A stretch of DNA of 37,824 nt, taken from positions 1 to 37,824 of the forward strand of contig CALXUD010000007.1 in assembly GCA_944391585.1 (NCBI GenBank). Direction: 5' to 3'. Positions within the stretch are counted from its first letter, which is position 1; each line of letters opens with the position of its first letter. The notes beneath the pieces are model-generated. The model was given only the letters and a program-made list of their open reading frames with translations, was not told the DNA's origin and searched no databases. The DNA is from an uncultured Alphaproteobacteria bacterium (GTDB taxonomy: Bacteria > Pseudomonadota > Alphaproteobacteria > CAAHEQ01 > UBA3637). The translations under genes were made by a program, and so were the position numbers. Below are positions 1 through 9,953 of this stretch, one piece after another.

Positions 1-480
1 GATTATCCATATGAAATTTCAACAATAAAAGAGGAATGTGATAAATGTTCTAATCGTGAAATGTACAATGAATATTGTATATTGAAGACAGGATGTGATG
101 GTTTCAGAGATCAATATGGAGCTTGTTATTCTTGTGATTATCCAGGGAGTGCATCAAATGTCCCTGAAAATGAGTGTAAGAAGTGTTCTAATCGGGAAAT
201 GTATGATGGATATTTTTGTGCATTTAAATGTGACGGTTTCAGAGATTATTCTGGAAATTGTTATGCTTGTGATTATTCAGGGAGTGCATCAGGTGTCTCT
301 GAAAATGAGTGTAAGAAGTGTTCTAATCGGGAAATGAGCGGGGGCTATTGCGTTTCATTAGATTTTTGTGATATTAAAGATCAATATGGAGCTTGTTATG
401 CTTGTGATTCAAGCAGTTCAATTTATGTCCAAGCGAGCGAATGTGGAAAATGTTTAAATAGATATATGAATGGAAATTAT
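1..480 (+). repeat. Coding tandem repeat, about 132-138 bp per unit
   Basis: The equivalent ATG of the NREM motif falls at 61, 199, 334 and 466, giving unit lengths of 138, 135 and 132 bp (46, 45 and 44 codons). The two central copies are nearly identical at DNA level; the block ending at 201 and the block ending at 336 share a long exact run. The outer copies are more diverged. This suggests recent duplication or gene conversion of the central units. The array starts before the window, so the total copy number is unknown. Confidence 0.8.
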
Positions 481-621
481 TGTCGTAAATGTAACCTTGG
501 ATATTATAATCCCAGTGGAGGAAGTATATGTAAAAAATGTCCTGATCGTTTAAGCATTACAAATGAAGCAGTTTGTACAGCATGTGGATATACGTGGAAT
601 TCTCGTCAAGGATGTATATAA
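1..621 (+). CDS. Cysteine-rich tandem-repeat protein, 5' end outside window
   Basis: The reading frame is open from base 1 to the TAA at 619-621, so the start lies upstream and only the last 206 residues are visible. The protein is made of units of about 45 residues, each with paired CxxC-type motifs (for example ACYSC, ECKKC) and the recurring string KKCSNREM. After four units it ends in a diverged cysteine-rich tail (residues about 160-206) with further CxxC pairs. This looks like an extracellular, disulfide-rich, growth-factor-receptor-like or furin-like repeat fold, but I cannot name a family. No membrane segment or sorting signal is visible in this part. A strong terminator follows 20 bases after the stop. 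The first ATG in the window (61) is inside a repeat and is not the true start. Function unknown. Confidence 0.8.
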   Translation, partial: DYPYEISTIKEECDKCSNREMYNEYCILKTGCDGFRDQYGACYSCDYPGSASNVPENECKKCSNREMYDGYFCAFKCDGFRDYSGNCYACDYSGSASGVSENECKKCSNREMSGGYCVSLDFCDIKDQYGACYACDSSSSIYVQASECGKCLNRYMNGNYCRKCNLGYYNPSGGSICKKCPDRLSITNEAVCTACGYTWNSRQGCI

Positions 622-1421: not shown

Positions 1422-2663
1422 TTAAAAATGATATTGAGCCTGTAAACCGAAAATACTGGATTGTAGGTTCTTCATTTTACCGGCAATCGGACCTGTTGAG
1501 TTATCTAAATCATAAATATAACTTGTTTTTGCAAACATATGGGTATAAGCAAAGTCAAATTGCCAATTGTCTCGCATATAAGAGGCTCCGATTGATGTCC
1601 ACCAACGATCATTATCCGGAATACGCCAGGTGCGAGTGGTATCCTTATGATCCGGACTTTCGTCCCATCCGCCGCCGAAACGGAAGGTCCAATGATCATT
1701 ATAATAGTAATCCACGCCGGCGGTTAAAGTCCAAGAATTATCGTAATTATATGGCGATTCTTTTGCCCAACCGTTATTGGTTGCGAACATGGGGTTTTCG
1801 GATTCCATGACAAATTTTTCAAATGAGGTGGACCAGTGTGTCCAGCGTGCCGTTCCTGAAAAACCGAATTTTCCGTGTTTTGTAAAACCGGAGAGGGTAA
1901 TTGTTTCCGGTAGATTTGGGGAAGCGCGTCCAATATAAGTGCCGTTGAACATTCCCCCATATGCTAAATTATTTTCAATTTTGTGATCCCCTTTTACCTG
2001 TTGAGTGGATTTCATTCGCCAGGATAATCCAATCCGTGTGTCCTTTATGGGTTCATACATTATACCTAATGTTCCGGAGACGGTCCAGCCATCTAATTCA
2101 AAATCGCTGCGGCCACCTCCTGCAAGCGGAGAAATAGTATTGGTCATATGGCCATAGATATAGCGAGCGATAAATGAACCGCCGACGGTTAGGCTATCAG
2201 TTAATTTATAAGATAAAGCGGGAGCTAAATCAACAACCTGTAATTCTGATTTAATTGCAGAATCCGCCACAAAAGAGTTGGCTTTATAGCGTGTGGACAG
2301 ACCATAAGGGACATAAACACCGAAACCAAAATCCCAACGGTTATTAATTTTATACTGTGCAAAAAAATTAGGAATGGATACATAGTGATTCATTTTGGTA
2401 TCATGTATACCATCGATTGAATCTAAATCGGAGTATAAATGAACAGTAGAAACACCCAATTGCATTCCGGATTTTTTAACCGCACTCATGCCGGCGGGGT
2501 TGAATGCGATGGCAGAATAGTCATCTCCAACTACTCCGGCACCCGCAAAAGCGCGACCTAATCCCGTGACGGAGTATTCATTTAATTGGTAAGAACCGGC
2601 AGATGCCGTTTGAGCGCATAACAAGGTTGTTAGAAAAGCCCAAAAAGATTTTTTGAATTTCAT
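1422..2663 (-). CDS. FadL/OmpP1/TodX-family outer-membrane transport protein
   Basis: The 413-residue protein has a signal peptide of about 22 residues ending in TASA, then the family N-terminus with SVTGLGRAFAGAG and the AIAFNPAGM motif, which form the hatch/plug of FadL channels. The rest is beta-strand-rich with many aromatic residues, and the C-terminal residue is Phe (QAQYHF), as expected for an outer-membrane barrel recognised by BamA. FadL relatives pass long-chain fatty acids or other hydrophobic molecules across the outer membrane; the substrate here is not determinable. AGAGGAT precedes the ATG at a good distance. It appears monocistronic, with its own terminator and a likely promoter bearing direct repeats upstream. 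Confidence 0.93.
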   Translation of the reverse strand: MKFKKSFWAFLTTLLCAQTASAGSYQLNEYSVTGLGRAFAGAGVVGDDYSAIAFNPAGMSAVKKSGMQLGVSTVHLYSDLDSIDGIHDTKMNHYVSIPNFFAQYKINNRWDFGFGVYVPYGLSTRYKANSFVADSAIKSELQVVDLAPALSYKLTDSLTVGGSFIARYIYGHMTNTISPLAGGGRSDFELDGWTVSGTLGIMYEPIKDTRIGLSWRMKSTQQVKGDHKIENNLAYGGMFNGTYIGRASPNLPETITLSGFTKHGKFGFSGTARWTHWSTSFEKFVMESENPMFATNNGWAKESPYNYDNSWTLTAGVDYYYNDHWTFRFGGGWDESPDHKDTTRTWRIPDNDRWWTSIGASYMRDNWQFDFAYTHMFAKTSYIYDLDNSTGPIAGKMKNLQSSIFGLQAQYHF

Positions 2664-3223: not shown

Positions 3224-3913
3224 TCATTCAGAAGGGTTTTCGAAACTTTTTGACGAGGAACGTCGTGTTAAATGATATTGAATGAGTGCTAAAGCAAATA
3301 ACCAAGGTAATGCCGATTCGGTTGTTTCTTCAAACAGTTCAATATATGCATGGATGCTCGGATCCAATGGCGTTTCCATTATCTTTTTGTAATTACCGGG
3401 GAAGCGGTCGGCTATTTTACACACGATGCCGGTGCCGCCTAATGTGGCAACTGTCCACGCAATCGGATTAAAACGGAAGAAAGATTTAAACAAAATCGGC
3501 AGATAACGCACCAGCAAGTAAATAACAACAATTGCAACCACGAGCAAAATATAGCCCGCAATCAATTTTTCATGTAAAGGGTTATTGGGGTTCGTAAAAA
3601 ATGGTAATTTAAAAGCGGTTGTATCGGTTTTTGTCAACCAATGTTGAATTCCCATTTCACGCAATAAAGCACAAATAAATAAGAAGACAAACAGTAAAAA
3701 GGTATTAAACGGTTTGCCTCTAAAATCGTATGCCGTCCACACAATAACAATTGCTGTTAAGGCATAGACAGTGTAGGTAATAGTTTCCAGAGTTGTGCTT
3801 GTAAAATGAAAAAGGGCATCTGCCGAAGTGGTTAAATGTGTTAAGAAAAAAAGAGAAACATATAAAAGAACGCACACAGGTGCAAACAAAGGATTTAAAA
3901 GTATTTTTTTCAC
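3224..3913 (-). CDS. Uncharacterised polytopic membrane protein (229 aa)
   Basis: The protein has about six hydrophobic segments (near residues 8-27, 40-60, 68-86, 118-137, 150-166 and 203-218), so it is an inner-membrane protein. Features that could be functional are a His (GIQHWLTK, near residue 92), a conserved-looking ELFEETTES acidic stretch just before the last segment, and a basic cytoplasmic tail. I cannot name a family. AAGGAAAA lies a few bases before the ATG, and an excellent sigma-70-like promoter sits about 50 bases upstream. It is probably a single-gene unit. Function unknown. Confidence 0.75.
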   Translation of the reverse strand: MKKILLNPLFAPVCVLLYVSLFFLTHLTTSADALFHFTSTTLETITYTVYALTAIVIVWTAYDFRGKPFNTFLLFVFLFICALLREMGIQHWLTKTDTTAFKLPFFTNPNNPLHEKLIAGYILLVVAIVVIYLLVRYLPILFKSFFRFNPIAWTVATLGGTGIVCKIADRFPGNYKKIMETPLDPSIHAYIELFEETTESALPWLFALALIQYHLTRRSSSKSFENPSE

Positions 3914-4143: not shown

Positions 4144-4219
<76 letters not shown>

Positions 4220-4298: not shown

Positions 4299-4610
4299 TT
4301 ATTCTTTTTCTCTTGGTAAATTTTGGTTCGGCAACGGATTAGCCGTGTGTGTGGTGATATAGTTAAACTGAATTTCTTTATGGCAAAACGGGCATGTGAT
4401 TTTTTGATTTTCTTCCGATGAATTATTCATATAAAAGTTTTGCGTTGTAGCGCGGGGGTTTTGTTTTTCTTTTTGAAATAAGTTTTCGCCAAAACGTTCT
4501 GCAACACCTGTTAATACCCCGATGGCCAATAATAAAAGAAGAGGTTTTTTGTGTTCACGGTAAACAGTGGTCATTTTGTGACATAATTCTTTTGGATTTT
4601 TAATCGGCAT
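4299..4610 (-). CDS. Small single-pass membrane protein with a CxxC zinc-finger-like tail (103 aa)
   Basis: No family recognised. One hydrophobic segment (residues about 23-40) follows a basic N-terminus containing one Cys. The C-terminal half has CPFCHKEI with a downstream His (C-x2-C-x11-H), resembling a small zinc-binding knuckle. GGGGGA precedes the ATG. It is the last of a minus-strand series that starts at mutS and passes through the 774-residue protein and a 77-residue membrane protein, so it may be co-transcribed with them. Function unknown. Confidence 0.65.
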   Translation of the reverse strand: MPIKNPKELCHKMTTVYREHKKPLLLLLAIGVLTGVAERFGENLFQKEKQNPRATTQNFYMNNSSEENQKITCPFCHKEIQFNYITTHTANPLPNQNLPREKE

Positions 4611-4659: not shown

Positions 4660-4893
4660 TCAGACTTCCGTCCATTCCACATCAATGATTTTTTCGGTTT
4701 GATGGGGGCGTGTTTTTTTGCGTTTGAGTGTCAGGTGCGGTTTATGGCGCAAGCTGAGAGCAATTTGTTGAAACACCCAGATGAAAAAAGCTATGATTAA
4801 AAGAGGAACGGCGATATACCATGCCACTAAAAACAATAAAATAAAAAAGCCTACCGCAAAAACAAGCGCGATTAAATTATATAAAAAATACAT
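4660..4893 (-). CDS. Small membrane protein (77 aa)
   Basis: The product is dominated by one long hydrophobic region or a hairpin of two membrane segments (residues about 4-45), then a basic tail rich in Lys/Arg/His and a short acidic end (DVEWTEV). I chose the ATG at 4893 because GGAGGG lies 4 bases before it; an in-frame ATG at 4941 has no such site. The gene begins about 55 bases after the stop of the 774-residue protein and probably shares its transcript. Family and function unknown. Confidence 0.65.
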   Translation of the reverse strand: MYFLYNLIALVFAVGFFILLFLVAWYIAVPLLIIAFFIWVFQQIALSLRHKPHLTLKRKKTRPHQTEKIIDVEWTEV

Positions 4894-4947: not shown

Positions 4948-7272
4948 TTAACGGCCGTGTTCCATATGCGTTGCTCTTAAATTGAGCAGTATGGGGTGTG
5001 TTTCTTGTTTTTTGGCCGGCTGACTTAATAAGTGTTTGGCGAGCTCTTCGTGTTGACGCAAAAAGGTTGTGTCAGTCCATTTGCGATAGCATTCTTTTCG
5101 GCTGGCTAAATCTAAAAAAACCAACTTATGACGTGCAAAATCAACATAATATAACAAGCGATGTTTGCGAATACGATGTGCGCGTAATTCACCGTATATT
5201 TCTTTTCTGTCAGCATATGATTTTTGATAGTTAAAATCACTGGATAGCATATAGGTTATTGTTTTATGCAAGGATTTTAAAATATCTGTTTGTTGAATTT
5301 GTGCCAATGCTGTTTGAAAAAGTGGGGTTTCATAAGCCATTTTATCTATTTGGCGCAAAATGGACATTTTTTGTTGAGTAGGGCGTGGTTGTTTAATGGG
5401 TTCGCTTTGTTGTTTTTGGGTGGTTTCTTTTTGCTCAAACGTGATACCTTTATGATTTAAAAAATCTGTGAAAAGTTGAGCGAATTTTGTATCACCTTTT
5501 TGTGTTAAACGCAGCTCCATTTTACGGATAAATTGAGGGGGTGCTTTTTCAAACGGCGTTTTCTTTTGAGAGTCTTTTTCTTGAATCCAATCTAAAAATA
5601 AATCCGGATGTTTTTGATAAATCCATTTAAGTCCGCGTGTGTCAGATTTCCCACATAAATGGTGTAAAATATTTTGTGAGTCAAAATGGCAAAAAGTTTT
5701 AAATTGTTCTTTATCCATAGTTTCTAAAAAAGACACTGCTTCATCTTGCAGAACATCAAAATAATAAAGAGACATTTTGTTTTGGGACAACCAAATCAAT
5801 TCATCCCCTGAAACGGTGTTCTTTTTTAATTTGTCACCATAAAGGGCATGAATTGTTTTTTGGCGTGTCGGATGTGAAAAAGGATAAGCTGCATCCAGCC
5901 ACTTTTGAAGCAAATAGGAGTTTTGAGAAAAATGATAGAGGAATTCTTTTTCAATACGTGGGCTGATTTTATTTTGCGAATCAATACTTGGTATCAACGT
6001 TTGTGCAATGATTTTTTCAGGTATTTGATGTGTAGCTAATTTTTGGATATGCTCTAAAAAGATTGATTCGGTAATTGTTTTATTTTGTAATAATCCCCAT
6101 AAAAGCGGTTTATTTTTTAAGCTTAATCCGGCCGCGTATACGAGCGCTTTTTTACGCAGAACTTTTCGTTTAAAAGGATAGTTCAACATGTCATAAATTT
6201 TCTTTTGTTCTATTTGAGAAGAAGAATTTAAAAACTCTTGCAGACAAGAGATCGGAATTCGTTGAATCATATCAGCATAAATTGAATGTTGCATTTGGTA
6301 TTTCTCTGCCAGAATTAAAAGAGATTTAATAGCTGAAAAATAAGAAAGTCGCTCATTTAAGTCTGGCATAAAAAGGCCGGTTTTTTTATCTTTATGTTGA
6401 TTTTGTTTAAAAAAGTTCCAGATATTGGAGCCATTTGTTTTACATAAATAATAAATATGGGCTTGAATATCTGATAAAGAGAGATTCCTCATTAAAACTT
6501 CAAAATTTGGAGTTTGTCGACTGTCAAATAAAATGCGATTCATAAACAGAGCAATCACTTGAGTATAGCGTTCATGTTCAAACAAAGGAATCTTTTCAGC
6601 TTGCAAGAATTCAATCACTTTTTTGAGTAAATCCGGTGATTGAAAAACGGAAGAGCGAAACGGAAAGGCATATTTTTCAATCAATTTAACCAAATGCTCT
6701 GCTTGACCGGTGTACATTTTAAACAACGGTTCCCATAATTCTGGTTGTTCTTTCCACAACATAACGCGAAACAAGACGCTATATTCACAAACGGTTTCAA
6801 ATGCTTTTAAATCATTTGCATAAATTGCCAGCATGTGTCCCATAAATTTAGTATAAACGTTGGAAACAGAGATATGTTGTCCATCTATTTTTATTAATTT
6901 ATTGAAAGGTAAGCTATCTTGCAGTGTTTCTTCCAATACGATTCCCAATGTGTGAATATGCAATCCGGCTTCTGTTAGTTGTTTTGCTTTTTCCTTAATC
7001 TCCTCAAACGGAGTTGGCTTCGTCAACAACTTTTTAAAATTTAAAAGTTGTGTGCGTTGGTTTGCATCGGCCATAAATAACAGATATTCTTTTTCGGCAA
7101 AAGCGCGTAGGCTGTTTTCTGTTGCGTTTTGGGGTTCGGTTTGCGATAAAAAACAGGCAATCCCTTTAAACGTTGAAGGAAGTGTGATATCGGTTTTACG
7201 TGTTAAAGCGATTACTTTATCCAGTTTTTCGTGGTTTTGTTCAAAAAGGGTGTCAATGTCTTTTAACTTCAT
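4948..7272 (-). CDS. Large alpha-helical repeat protein with RelE/ParE-like C-terminal domain
   Basis: This 774-residue cytoplasmic-looking protein has no signal peptide or membrane segment. Residues 1 to about 600 appear almost wholly helical, with weak ankyrin-like units; the clearest reads ILHHLCGKSDTRGLKWIY and ends in KKTPFEKA. A Gln/Lys/Pro-rich linker lies near residues 610-635. Residues about 640-735 resemble the RelE/ParE toxin fold: a helical hairpin, then beta strands with ELRAHRIRKHRLLYYVD and LVFLDLASRKECYR, matching the family pattern of YRL-x-Y-x-D followed by a (G/S)HR/K-E-x-Y ending. It starts 53 bases after mutS with ATG at 7272. Either an RNase-like toxin tail or a non-toxic RelE-fold interaction module is possible. 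The domain call is my reading of the pattern, not a database match. Confidence 0.75.
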   Translation of the reverse strand: MKLKDIDTLFEQNHEKLDKVIALTRKTDITLPSTFKGIACFLSQTEPQNATENSLRAFAEKEYLLFMADANQRTQLLNFKKLLTKPTPFEEIKEKAKQLTEAGLHIHTLGIVLEETLQDSLPFNKLIKIDGQHISVSNVYTKFMGHMLAIYANDLKAFETVCEYSVLFRVMLWKEQPELWEPLFKMYTGQAEHLVKLIEKYAFPFRSSVFQSPDLLKKVIEFLQAEKIPLFEHERYTQVIALFMNRILFDSRQTPNFEVLMRNLSLSDIQAHIYYLCKTNGSNIWNFFKQNQHKDKKTGLFMPDLNERLSYFSAIKSLLILAEKYQMQHSIYADMIQRIPISCLQEFLNSSSQIEQKKIYDMLNYPFKRKVLRKKALVYAAGLSLKNKPLLWGLLQNKTITESIFLEHIQKLATHQIPEKIIAQTLIPSIDSQNKISPRIEKEFLYHFSQNSYLLQKWLDAAYPFSHPTRQKTIHALYGDKLKKNTVSGDELIWLSQNKMSLYYFDVLQDEAVSFLETMDKEQFKTFCHFDSQNILHHLCGKSDTRGLKWIYQKHPDLFLDWIQEKDSQKKTPFEKAPPQFIRKMELRLTQKGDTKFAQLFTDFLNHKGITFEQKETTQKQQSEPIKQPRPTQQKMSILRQIDKMAYETPLFQTALAQIQQTDILKSLHKTITYMLSSDFNYQKSYADRKEIYGELRAHRIRKHRLLYYVDFARHKLVFLDLASRKECYRKWTDTTFLRQHEELAKHLLSQPAKKQETHPILLNLRATHMEHGR

Positions 7273-7325: not shown

Positions 7326-9953
7326 TCAACTTTTTTGAGCAATACTCTTTAAATCATACAAAAAATCAAGCGCTTCACGTGGAGAAAGCATATCTAAATC
7401 AGTTTGTTTCAATTTTGTTTCCACTGCGCTGAAAGTTGGGCAAGCCGGTGTTTGAACCGCAACTTGGAAGAGAGGGAGATTATCAAATAAATGAGAACGG
7501 CCGGCGTTGGTTTCTTCAAGTTCGGACAAAACGTTTTGGGCTCGTTTCAGAACCGCTGCCGGCAGACCCGCCAATTTTGCCACATGTATCCCATATGATT
7601 TATCTGCCGATCCTTCTACGACTTCATGTAAAAAGACGATAGAGCCTTGCCATTCTTTGATGCGCATGGTGTGTAGTGAAAGGTTTTTTAATTTATCAGC
7701 CAGATGAGTGAGTTCATGATAATGTGTGGCGAAAAGACCGCGTGATTTATTTTGAGTGCACAAATATTCTACAACAGCCCAAGCCAATGAAAGCCCATCA
7801 AAGGTGGCTGTGCCACGTCCGACTTCATCTAAAATAACCAAAGAGCGTTCAGTTGCCCCGTTTAAAATATGACTGACTTCAACCATTTCAACCATAAAGG
7901 TGGAGCGTCCGCGCGCTAAATCATCCGAAGCTCCAACTCGAGAGAACAATTTATCCACAATGCCGATTGTGGCTTGATCTGCCGGCACAAAAGAACCCAT
8001 TTGTGCTAAAACGACTATGAGAGCATTTTGTCTTAAAAACGTGCTTTTCCCCGCCATATTAGGACCGGTTAATAACCATAGTTCGTTAGTGTCGTTTTTG
8101 TTGAGACAGCAATCATTACCGATGAATATTTGTTGTTCTTTTTTCAGTGATTGTTCCACGATTAAGTGTCGACCGTTTTTGATTTCAAAATCCAATCCGT
8201 TTGTTAAAATAGGACGAACATAATTATTTTGTAATGCTGCTTTTGCTAAACCACAGGCGACATCTATTTGTGCTAAAGCATTGGCAGCGGAAACAATTTT
8301 TTCTTTTTGTGTAAGCAAACGTCGGCGCAGTTGTTCAAAAATCTCTAATTCCAGCGCCAGAATTTTGGTGTCCGCCTGATTAATTTTAGTTTCCAGTTCA
8401 GAAAGTTCAACTGTTGTAAAACGAACGTTATTTAGTAAAGTTTGACGATGGATAAAACCCATTTCTTTATTTTCCAGCAAAGGTAACGCTTTTGTTGAAG
8501 GAACTTCTACATAATAACCAAGTAAATTATTAAAAGTGACTTTTAAAGTTTGGATGCCGGTTTGTGCGATATATTTTGCTTGTAAATCCATCAATAATTT
8601 TTTAGATGAGTTTTTTATTAACAAAAATTCATCTAAAACAGCGCTATATCCTTTTTGAATAAAACCGCCATCACGAGCCAAAAGAGGAGGTTCAGCGATG
8701 AGTGCTTTTTCTATCTCATTAACAAAAGAAGAATGTTCTCCCAAACTGCGTTTGTTTTCTTCTAAAGAATCGGGCACAATCGGTGTTTGAAGCAGATTGC
8801 GTAAAGCAGGAATCAGACCGAGGGCCGAAGCAATGGCTTTTAAATCTCGCGGACCACCACGCCCCAAGCATAAGCGCGATAAAGAGCGTTCTATATCGGG
8901 CATCCCTTTAAATAAATTTTCGACGTTTTCACGAATATCGGGATGAATAGTAAAGTATTCTATTTTATCCAAACGGCGGTTAATTTGGGTAATGTCTGTT
9001 AACGGCGCGGACAGATAATCGGTTAGTAATCGTCCGCCACCGCCCGTTGTGGTATAATCCAGCGCCTCTAAAACGCTTTGTGCCCTTTTATCATCAGACA
9101 ACGCTTTTGTTAACTCTAAGCTGCGGCGAGTAGAGGCGTCTATTTCCATAAATGTGTCGGCTTGAATTTTTTGAATCTTTTTAAAAAAAGGCAGTTGGCC
9201 TTTTTGTGTTTCAATCACATATTCCAGCAATAAACCGCAGACGATAGTTTCTTGTTTTGAAAATGAATCGAATCCATCAAGATCTGAGAGAGAAAAAAAA
9301 TCACGTAATTGTTTTTGTGTGTTTGGATAATTGAATTGTTCAATGGGTTTTAAGGTTAAAGATGGACCTAATTCCATCAACATTTGCTCTTCTGAATCGG
9401 ATAAATTATCCGGCACAATCAATTCGGATAAATTCAGTCGGGACAAGGTAGAAAAAAGCGCATTTTGGGGAATACTTTGTACGCAAAAATCACCGGTGGA
9501 GATATCCATCCATGCCAAAGCATTAGTGAGCGGAGCATTCAAAAGGCAGCCGATAAAATTATTGTGTTTAGCGCTTAAAAGGGTTTCTTCGGTTAAAGTG
9601 CCGGGTGTAACAACCCGAATGACATCGCGTCGGACAACAGAACCGGCCCCACGTTTTTTGGCTTCCGCCGGATCTTCCATTTGTTCGCAAACAGCTACTT
9701 TAAAGCCGGCTTTAACCAATTTATTCAGATAGCTTTCATAGGCATGAAACGGTACACCGCACATCGGGATATTGTGTCCTTGATGTTTACCACGGTAAGT
9801 TAAAACAATATCCAATGTTTTAGAGGCTTGTTTGGCATCTTCAAAAAATAATTCATAAAAATCGCCCATACGATAGAAGAGCAGACAATCCTGATAATGG
9901 CTTTTTGTTTCCAGATATTGTGCCATCATTGGTGTTGTTTTTTCTGATTTCAT
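7326..9953 (-). CDS. mutS: DNA mismatch repair protein MutS
   Basis: The full-length 875-residue MutS recognises mismatches and small loops and recruits MutL. The N-terminal mismatch-binding domain has the F-x-E wedge motif DFYELF (residues 31-36). Connector, core and clamp domains follow, then the ABC-type ATPase with Walker A TGPNMAGKST near residue 625-635, the ABC signature region with RGRSTFMVEM, Walker B VILDEVGRGT and the switch His in FATHYHEL. AAGGAA lies before the ATG. It is the first gene of a minus-strand series and is divergent from the sensor kinase gene, with only 41 bases between the two start codons. Nothing looks broken. Confidence 0.98.
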   Translation of the reverse strand: MKSEKTTPMMAQYLETKSHYQDCLLFYRMGDFYELFFEDAKQASKTLDIVLTYRGKHQGHNIPMCGVPFHAYESYLNKLVKAGFKVAVCEQMEDPAEAKKRGAGSVVRRDVIRVVTPGTLTEETLLSAKHNNFIGCLLNAPLTNALAWMDISTGDFCVQSIPQNALFSTLSRLNLSELIVPDNLSDSEEQMLMELGPSLTLKPIEQFNYPNTQKQLRDFFSLSDLDGFDSFSKQETIVCGLLLEYVIETQKGQLPFFKKIQKIQADTFMEIDASTRRSLELTKALSDDKRAQSVLEALDYTTTGGGGRLLTDYLSAPLTDITQINRRLDKIEYFTIHPDIRENVENLFKGMPDIERSLSRLCLGRGGPRDLKAIASALGLIPALRNLLQTPIVPDSLEENKRSLGEHSSFVNEIEKALIAEPPLLARDGGFIQKGYSAVLDEFLLIKNSSKKLLMDLQAKYIAQTGIQTLKVTFNNLLGYYVEVPSTKALPLLENKEMGFIHRQTLLNNVRFTTVELSELETKINQADTKILALELEIFEQLRRRLLTQKEKIVSAANALAQIDVACGLAKAALQNNYVRPILTNGLDFEIKNGRHLIVEQSLKKEQQIFIGNDCCLNKNDTNELWLLTGPNMAGKSTFLRQNALIVVLAQMGSFVPADQATIGIVDKLFSRVGASDDLARGRSTFMVEMVEVSHILNGATERSLVILDEVGRGTATFDGLSLAWAVVEYLCTQNKSRGLFATHYHELTHLADKLKNLSLHTMRIKEWQGSIVFLHEVVEGSADKSYGIHVAKLAGLPAAVLKRAQNVLSELEETNAGRSHLFDNLPLFQVAVQTPACPTFSAVETKLKQTDLDMLSPREALDFLYDLKSIAQKS

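What the first reader, a model, noticed from the sequence alone, without database searches (positions are those of the whole stretch)
4948..7272. RelE/ParE-like domain at the C-terminus of a 774-residue helical protein
Residues about 640-735 show a helical hairpin and then strands with ELRAHRIRKHRLLYYVD and LVFLDLASRKECYR, the pattern seen in RelE/ParE ribonuclease/gyrase toxins, usually free proteins of about 90 residues. Here the domain is fused to some 600 residues of ankyrin-like helical repeats and sits behind mutS. No standard antitoxin gene (small, DNA-binding) is adjacent. This could be a polymorphic-toxin-like effector, a self-inhibited toxin held by its own repeats, or a domesticated fold.
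Basis: partly seen in the sequence, partly recalled or inferred. Interest (0 to 1): 0.6.

Follow-up and report, generated by a model that had tools for sequence, protein, structure and literature searches.

The report
Orphan helical protein with RelE-like tail
In one uncultured gut-type alphaproteobacterium, a 774-residue protein with no known relatives has been inserted between two normally adjoining genes; a stretch of about 85 residues near its end faintly but reproducibly resembles the RNA-cutting toxin RelE, with RelE's key catalytic residues in place and no antitoxin gene beside it.

Summary
The ORF (4948-7272, minus strand, 774 aa) is real, cytoplasmic-looking and mainly helical. It is an orphan: only itself among 385 genomes of its class and 43 of its family; nothing in phages, plasmids, IMG/VR, Pfam, NCBIfam or PDB. 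RelE (not ParE) profiles match residues 650-731. PHROG 1213 matches over its full length, but library-wide E (0.04-0.06) is marginal. Tail-specific tests are stronger: 0 of 19,742 shuffles reach the tail with a 78-sequence RelE profile; hhalign P 4e-5. R700, R705, R725 and Y729 keep the RelE spacing R-x4-R-x19-R-x3-Y, aligning with E. coli RelE K54, R61, R81 and Y87. A rival match to UvrD motif VI vanishes with broader profiles. Single-sequence AlphaFold was uninformative. 'Ankyrin-like' is not supported. The place behind mutS is an insertion: in 24 of 25 relatives holding both genes, a small membrane-protein gene starts within 16 bases of the mutS stop; here the ORF splits that pair, so the neighbour is no cognate antitoxin or immunity gene. 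Most likely reading: an accessory RelE-type ribonuclease restrained or aimed in cis by its helical part.

The parts
4948..7272 (-). 774-aa orphan ORF; SD-like AAAGGAAAAAG before ATG at 7272
5443..7272 (-). residues 1-610, mainly helical region without recognisable family or repeats
   Evidence: AF2 single-sequence secondary structure, low confidence; no family; no self-repeats; no Ank_2
5353..5442 (-). residues 611-640, P/Q-rich linker (10 of 30 P or Q)
   Evidence: sequence
5080..5325 (-). residues 650-731, RelE-like domain
   Evidence: PHROG 1213 E 0.04-0.06, positions 3/5-88 of 88; only and best place in own genome, E 0.028; 78-seq RelE HMM 13.4 bits, 0/19742 shuffles; hhalign P 4.3e-5
5086..5175 (-). 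R-x4-R-x19-R-x3-Y, residues R700, R705, R725, Y729 (align with E. coli RelE K54, R61, R81, Y87)
   Evidence: 61 of 78 RelE-set members have the same 30-residue spacing; only such motif in the window proteome, 0.09 expected; catalytic roles from PMC2807027
4951..5079 (-). residues 732-774, short C-terminal extension
   Evidence: sequence
4660..4893 (-). small membrane-protein gene (77 aa) that directly follows mutS in relatives; separated from mutS here by the insertion
   Evidence: SD GGAGGG
7326..9953 (-). mutS, upstream flank of the insertion

Best explanation
A gene gained by this lineage codes for a large cytoplasmic protein in which residues ~650-731 form a RelE-type (BECR-fold) ribonuclease domain with the arginine/tyrosine catalytic set kept. 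With no antitoxin or immunity gene, the ~610-residue helical part and its P/Q-rich linker most likely restrain or aim the nuclease in cis, releasing it on a trigger to cut RNA, probably mRNA in the ribosomal A site. Shown: the gene, its orphan status, the insertion, remote RelE similarity, catalytic-residue spacing, absence of a recognisable partner next door. Inferred: fold, nuclease activity, cis-restraint, trigger.
For: PHROG 1213 'RelE-like toxin' over full profile length and the only place in the own genome up to E 10. RelE HMMs from genomic (23) and viral (55) sets each give p about 3-4e-4 against ~20,000 tail shuffles; joined, 0 of 19,742; hhalign P goes from 6e-4 to 4.3e-5. The tail is the top tile in the window proteome (12.4 bits, next protein 5.0). 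R700/R705/R725/Y729 spacing equals that of 61 of 78 RelE members; R61, R81 and Y87 are the catalytically important residues of RelE (PMC2807027). In 24 relatives the next gene starts -16 to +7 bases from the mutS stop, so it is not a cognate antitoxin; Pfam finds no antitoxin family in neighbouring small ORFs.
Against: Library-wide E-values (0.03-0.06) are near noise: Pfam gives EURL at 0.028 for the same tail and other segments of the protein get 0.1-0.4 in PHROGs. AF2 single-sequence models show helices where RelE strands are expected, at pLDDT about 40. No homologue exists to show that the catalytic residues are conserved. Cis-restraint has no direct evidence.
Confidence: 0.42

Rival explanations
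1. The tail is not RelE-like; the resemblance is chance in a basic, aromatic-rich tail of an orphan protein of another kind.
For: Near-noise library E-values; AF2 predicts helices; an equally strong first-pass match to UvrD motif VI (E 0.025).
Against: The UvrD match collapses when the profile is broadened (16.9 to 8.2 to 3.1 bits; hhalign P 0.001 to 0.28), while RelE persists in two separate halves and strengthens when joined; catalytic spacing is exact.
Confidence: 0.3
2. An injected effector: the helical part binds a target and the RelE-like tail cuts RNA in a eukaryotic (for example gut protist) or bacterial recipient.
For: Own genome has a VirB4 ATPase and ankyrin proteins; no immunity gene, as for ankyrin + Tox-REase-8 effectors of Wolbachia/Amoebophilus (PMC3482391); accessory orphan gene.
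Against: No secretion signal or trafficking domain found; VirB4 may belong to a conjugation system (not tested); classical RelE acts on bacterial ribosomes, so the producer would still need protection.
Confidence: 0.14
3. A domesticated or inactive RelE-like fold used for RNA or ribosome binding.
For: No antitoxin; the position of RelE K52 is alanine; single-copy gene read in line with mutS.
Against: R61/R81/Y87 equivalents are all kept; K52A in RelE did not significantly lower activity (PMC2807027); the gene is not conserved, unlike what a housekeeping role would predict.
Confidence: 0.14

Closest known systems
RelE family of type II toxins (PHROG 1213; E. coli RelE)
   Same: Profile match over positions 3/5-88 of 88; R61/R81/Y87 (and K54 as R) positions and spacing kept
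   Different: Domain near the C-terminus of a 774-aa protein rather than ~90 aa alone; no antitoxin gene beside it; similarity remote; fold not shown
Tox-RelE polymorphic toxins (PMC3482391; its text reports a single instance of the classical RelE domain, in Paenibacillus elgii)
   Same: RelE-like domain towards the C-terminal end of a large protein
   Different: No trafficking domain, RHS repeats or immunity gene found; 43 residues follow the domain
Ankyrin-array effectors with C-terminal nuclease (Tox-REase-8 of Wolbachia/Amoebophilus, PMC3482391)
   Same: Helical N-terminal part, nuclease-like tail, no immunity gene, accessory
   Different: Different nuclease fold; ankyrin repeats not detectable here; single copy

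Membership tests
RelE superfamily toxin domain | Sequence profile match | tested here: met
   Remote: 0/19742 shuffles, hhalign P 4.3e-5; PHROG E 0.04-0.06 is marginal
RelE superfamily toxin domain | Catalytic R61, R81, Y87 equivalents | tested here: met
   R705, R725, Y729 at exact spacing
RelE superfamily toxin domain | Helical segment plus four-stranded sheet | tested here: inconclusive
   AF2 single-sequence pLDDT 48 and 53, no strands modelled in the tail
RelE superfamily toxin domain | Ribosome-dependent RNA cleavage | not testable with these tools
   needs an experiment
Type II RelE/RelB toxin-antitoxin module | Small free toxin with adjacent antitoxin gene | tested here: not met
   774 aa; next gene is a conserved membrane-protein gene also present where the ORF is absent; no antitoxin family in small neighbours
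ParE gyrase toxins (PF05016) | Profile match | tested here: not met
   2.6 bits, 1643 of 19350 shuffles as good; no PF05016 match in own genome
Polymorphic toxin | N-terminal trafficking domain and immunity gene downstream | tested here: not met
   No family in N-terminal part; downstream gene is the ancestral neighbour of mutS
Ankyrin-repeat protein | Ankyrin profile match or repeats | tested here: not met
UvrD/PcrA helicase fragment | Motif VI match that holds for the family | tested here: not met
   Signal only with closest sequences; 374 of 17621 shuffles as good with distant ones

The most novel reading that the evidence does not exclude
A one-gene, antitoxin-free RelE ribonuclease whose large helical sensor region keeps it silent in cis and fires it on a trigger such as phage infection or host contact.
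Probability: 0.2. Interest if true: 0.68.

Novelty: new variant of a known kind. Interest (0 to 1): 0.4.

Why it matters
Classical RelE is almost always a small free toxin held by a separate antitoxin. In 385 class genomes the RelE-profile places listed lie nearly all in short frames, mostly under 180 aa, and a broad survey of polymorphic toxins saw only one classical RelE instance (PMC3482391). A RelE ribonuclease controlled by its own polypeptide would be an unusual control logic for this fold and could be tested with one short construct.

Tried and rejected
Paralogue or homologue searches (own genome, family, class, genome contigs, viral, phages, plasmids): none. UvrD motif VI homology: rejected by broadened profiles. 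ParE: no signal. Ankyrin repeats: none detectable. A partner among neighbours: the 77-aa membrane gene and the 229-aa membrane protein occur in relatives without the ORF. Direct or terminal inverted repeats marking the insertion: only low-complexity matches. Fold search was not run because both models are low confidence. tblastn of the tail against phages and plasmids gave only E 2-10 noise.

Full report
What is there. The ORF at 4948-7272 (minus) encodes 774 residues, starts about 53 bases after the mutS stop with a plausible ribosome-binding site, has lower GC (0.345) than mutS (0.398) and no transmembrane stretch. No Pfam, NCBIfam, PADLOC or PDB sequence match exists (only sub-threshold noise). 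It was not found elsewhere in the family (43 genomes), in 385 genomes of the class (except itself), or in GTDB contigs, IMG/VR, phage or plasmid records. The contig scans need exact short peptide matches, so distant homologues there could be missed. The genome is a 1.08-Mb, 74-contig assembly; loci of relatives carrying its FadL homologue are metagenome-assembled Alphaproteobacteria, mostly from ruminant guts.

The position. In 25 relatives' loci that hold both mutS and a homologue of the small membrane protein at 4660-4893, the second gene starts between 16 bases before and 7 bases after the mutS stop in 24; the one exception (L012) has 574 bases between. In several genus-g4 genomes a FadL-type porin gene homologous to window 1422-2663 follows. 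In the window 2.4 kb with the 774-aa ORF separate mutS from the small gene. The ORF is thus a lineage-specific insertion into a tightly spaced pair. Both flanks are syntenic on one contig, which argues against an assembly chimaera. The neighbour is not a dedicated antitoxin or immunity gene, since relatives keep it without the ORF. 'Behind mutS' is a landing place, not a functional link. L012 shows that the same junction took a different ORF (195 aa).

The tail. PHROG 1213 (RelE-like toxin) aligns to residues 647/650-731 over its whole length, E 0.04-0.06 against 38,880 families, and this is the only place in the whole own genome up to E 10 (E 0.028). Such E-values are marginal: the same tail gets EURL at 0.028 in Pfam. 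Tail-specific tests are stronger. A RelE profile from 23 genomic sequences: 8 of 19,235 shuffles as good; from 55 viral sequences: 6 of 19,840; joined: 0 of 19,742, with hhalign P falling from 6e-4 to 4.3e-5 and probability rising to 69%. Other segments of the protein give nothing, and the tail is the top tile of the window proteome, 12.4 bits against 5.0 for the next protein. ParE gives no signal. (The ParE profile was built with some loci in the wrong strand and is disregarded; one search corrected it.)

Catalytic residues. Among ten RelE sequences aligned, R57, R62, R82 and Y86 are invariant. The tail has R700, R705, R725 and Y729 at the identical spacing, shared by 61 of 78 RelE members; it is the only such motif in the window proteome, 0.09 expected by shuffling, although 156 of 20,000 shuffled tails also carry it, so by itself it is modest evidence. 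In E. coli RelE, R61, R81 and Y87 are the residues whose loss lowers cleavage (PMC2807027); matching them to R62/R82/Y86 of the alignment, and so to R705/R725/Y729, is my inference.

The rival match. The tail's non-self hits in the family with long open frames were UvrD/PcrA motif VI. With four close UvrD sequences the score is high (16.9 bits), but it falls to 8.2 with twelve and 3.1 with distant ones only (374 of 17,621 shuffles as good), whereas RelE does the opposite. I take the UvrD match as chance.

Limits. AF2 without an alignment gave pLDDT 48 (whole) and 53 (residues 640-750), with helices throughout the tail; this neither supports nor excludes the fold. Simple strand/helix propensities are indecisive. 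I put the domain assignment at about 0.65-0.7.

How it may work. Classical RelE needs a separate antitoxin; none is recognisable here. Cis-restraint by the helical region and linker is the simplest way for the cell to survive the gene, if the domain is active. Export is the main alternative: the genome has a VirB4 ATPase and ankyrin proteins, and ankyrin plus nuclease effectors without immunity genes are known in endosymbionts (PMC3482391). A dead or domesticated fold is less favoured because the key residues are kept and the gene is not conserved.

Place among known things. Works like: RelE-type ribonuclease (inferred). Member of the RelE/RelB toxin-antitoxin class: no (size and antitoxin tests not met). 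Polymorphic toxin: no (trafficking domain and immunity gene not met). Classical RelE on a large protein is rare: one instance reported in polymorphic toxins (PMC3482391), and RelE matches in the class genomes listed here lie nearly all in short frames, the exceptions being one partial match in a 1057-aa frame and one in a 320-aa frame with a stop inside (neither was followed up).

Noticed in passing
window 4144-4219, minus: tRNA-Thr (CGT) gene between the 103-aa and 229-aa ORFs.
   Followed up: no
L012, between mutS (ends 3549) and about 4133: A 195-aa membrane-like ORF sits between mutS and the small membrane-protein gene in another species: the same junction accepted a different insertion.
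   Followed up: partly
window 3224-3913, minus: 229-aa membrane protein of no Pfam family, found in 23 of 43 family genomes including this one; in the genomes compared it lies away from mutS.
   Followed up: partly
window 61-621, plus; L192: Cys-rich repeat protein; in a relative similar Cys-rich modules follow a prepilin-like N-terminus.
   Followed up: no
window 4299-4610, minus: 103-aa protein with one hydrophobic segment and a zinc-ribbon-like end (PF21957 E 1e-4, below cut-off); no relative seen at the mutS/FadL loci compared.
   Followed up: no
genome G137:C9:91204-91308: Partial RelE-profile match (E 1e-4, positions 33-68) inside a 1057-aa open frame: possible second large fusion.
   Followed up: no
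own genome G000:C45:5678-6175: VirB4-type ATPase (E 3e-13, 821-aa frame), so a type IV secretion or conjugation system may exist.
   Followed up: no
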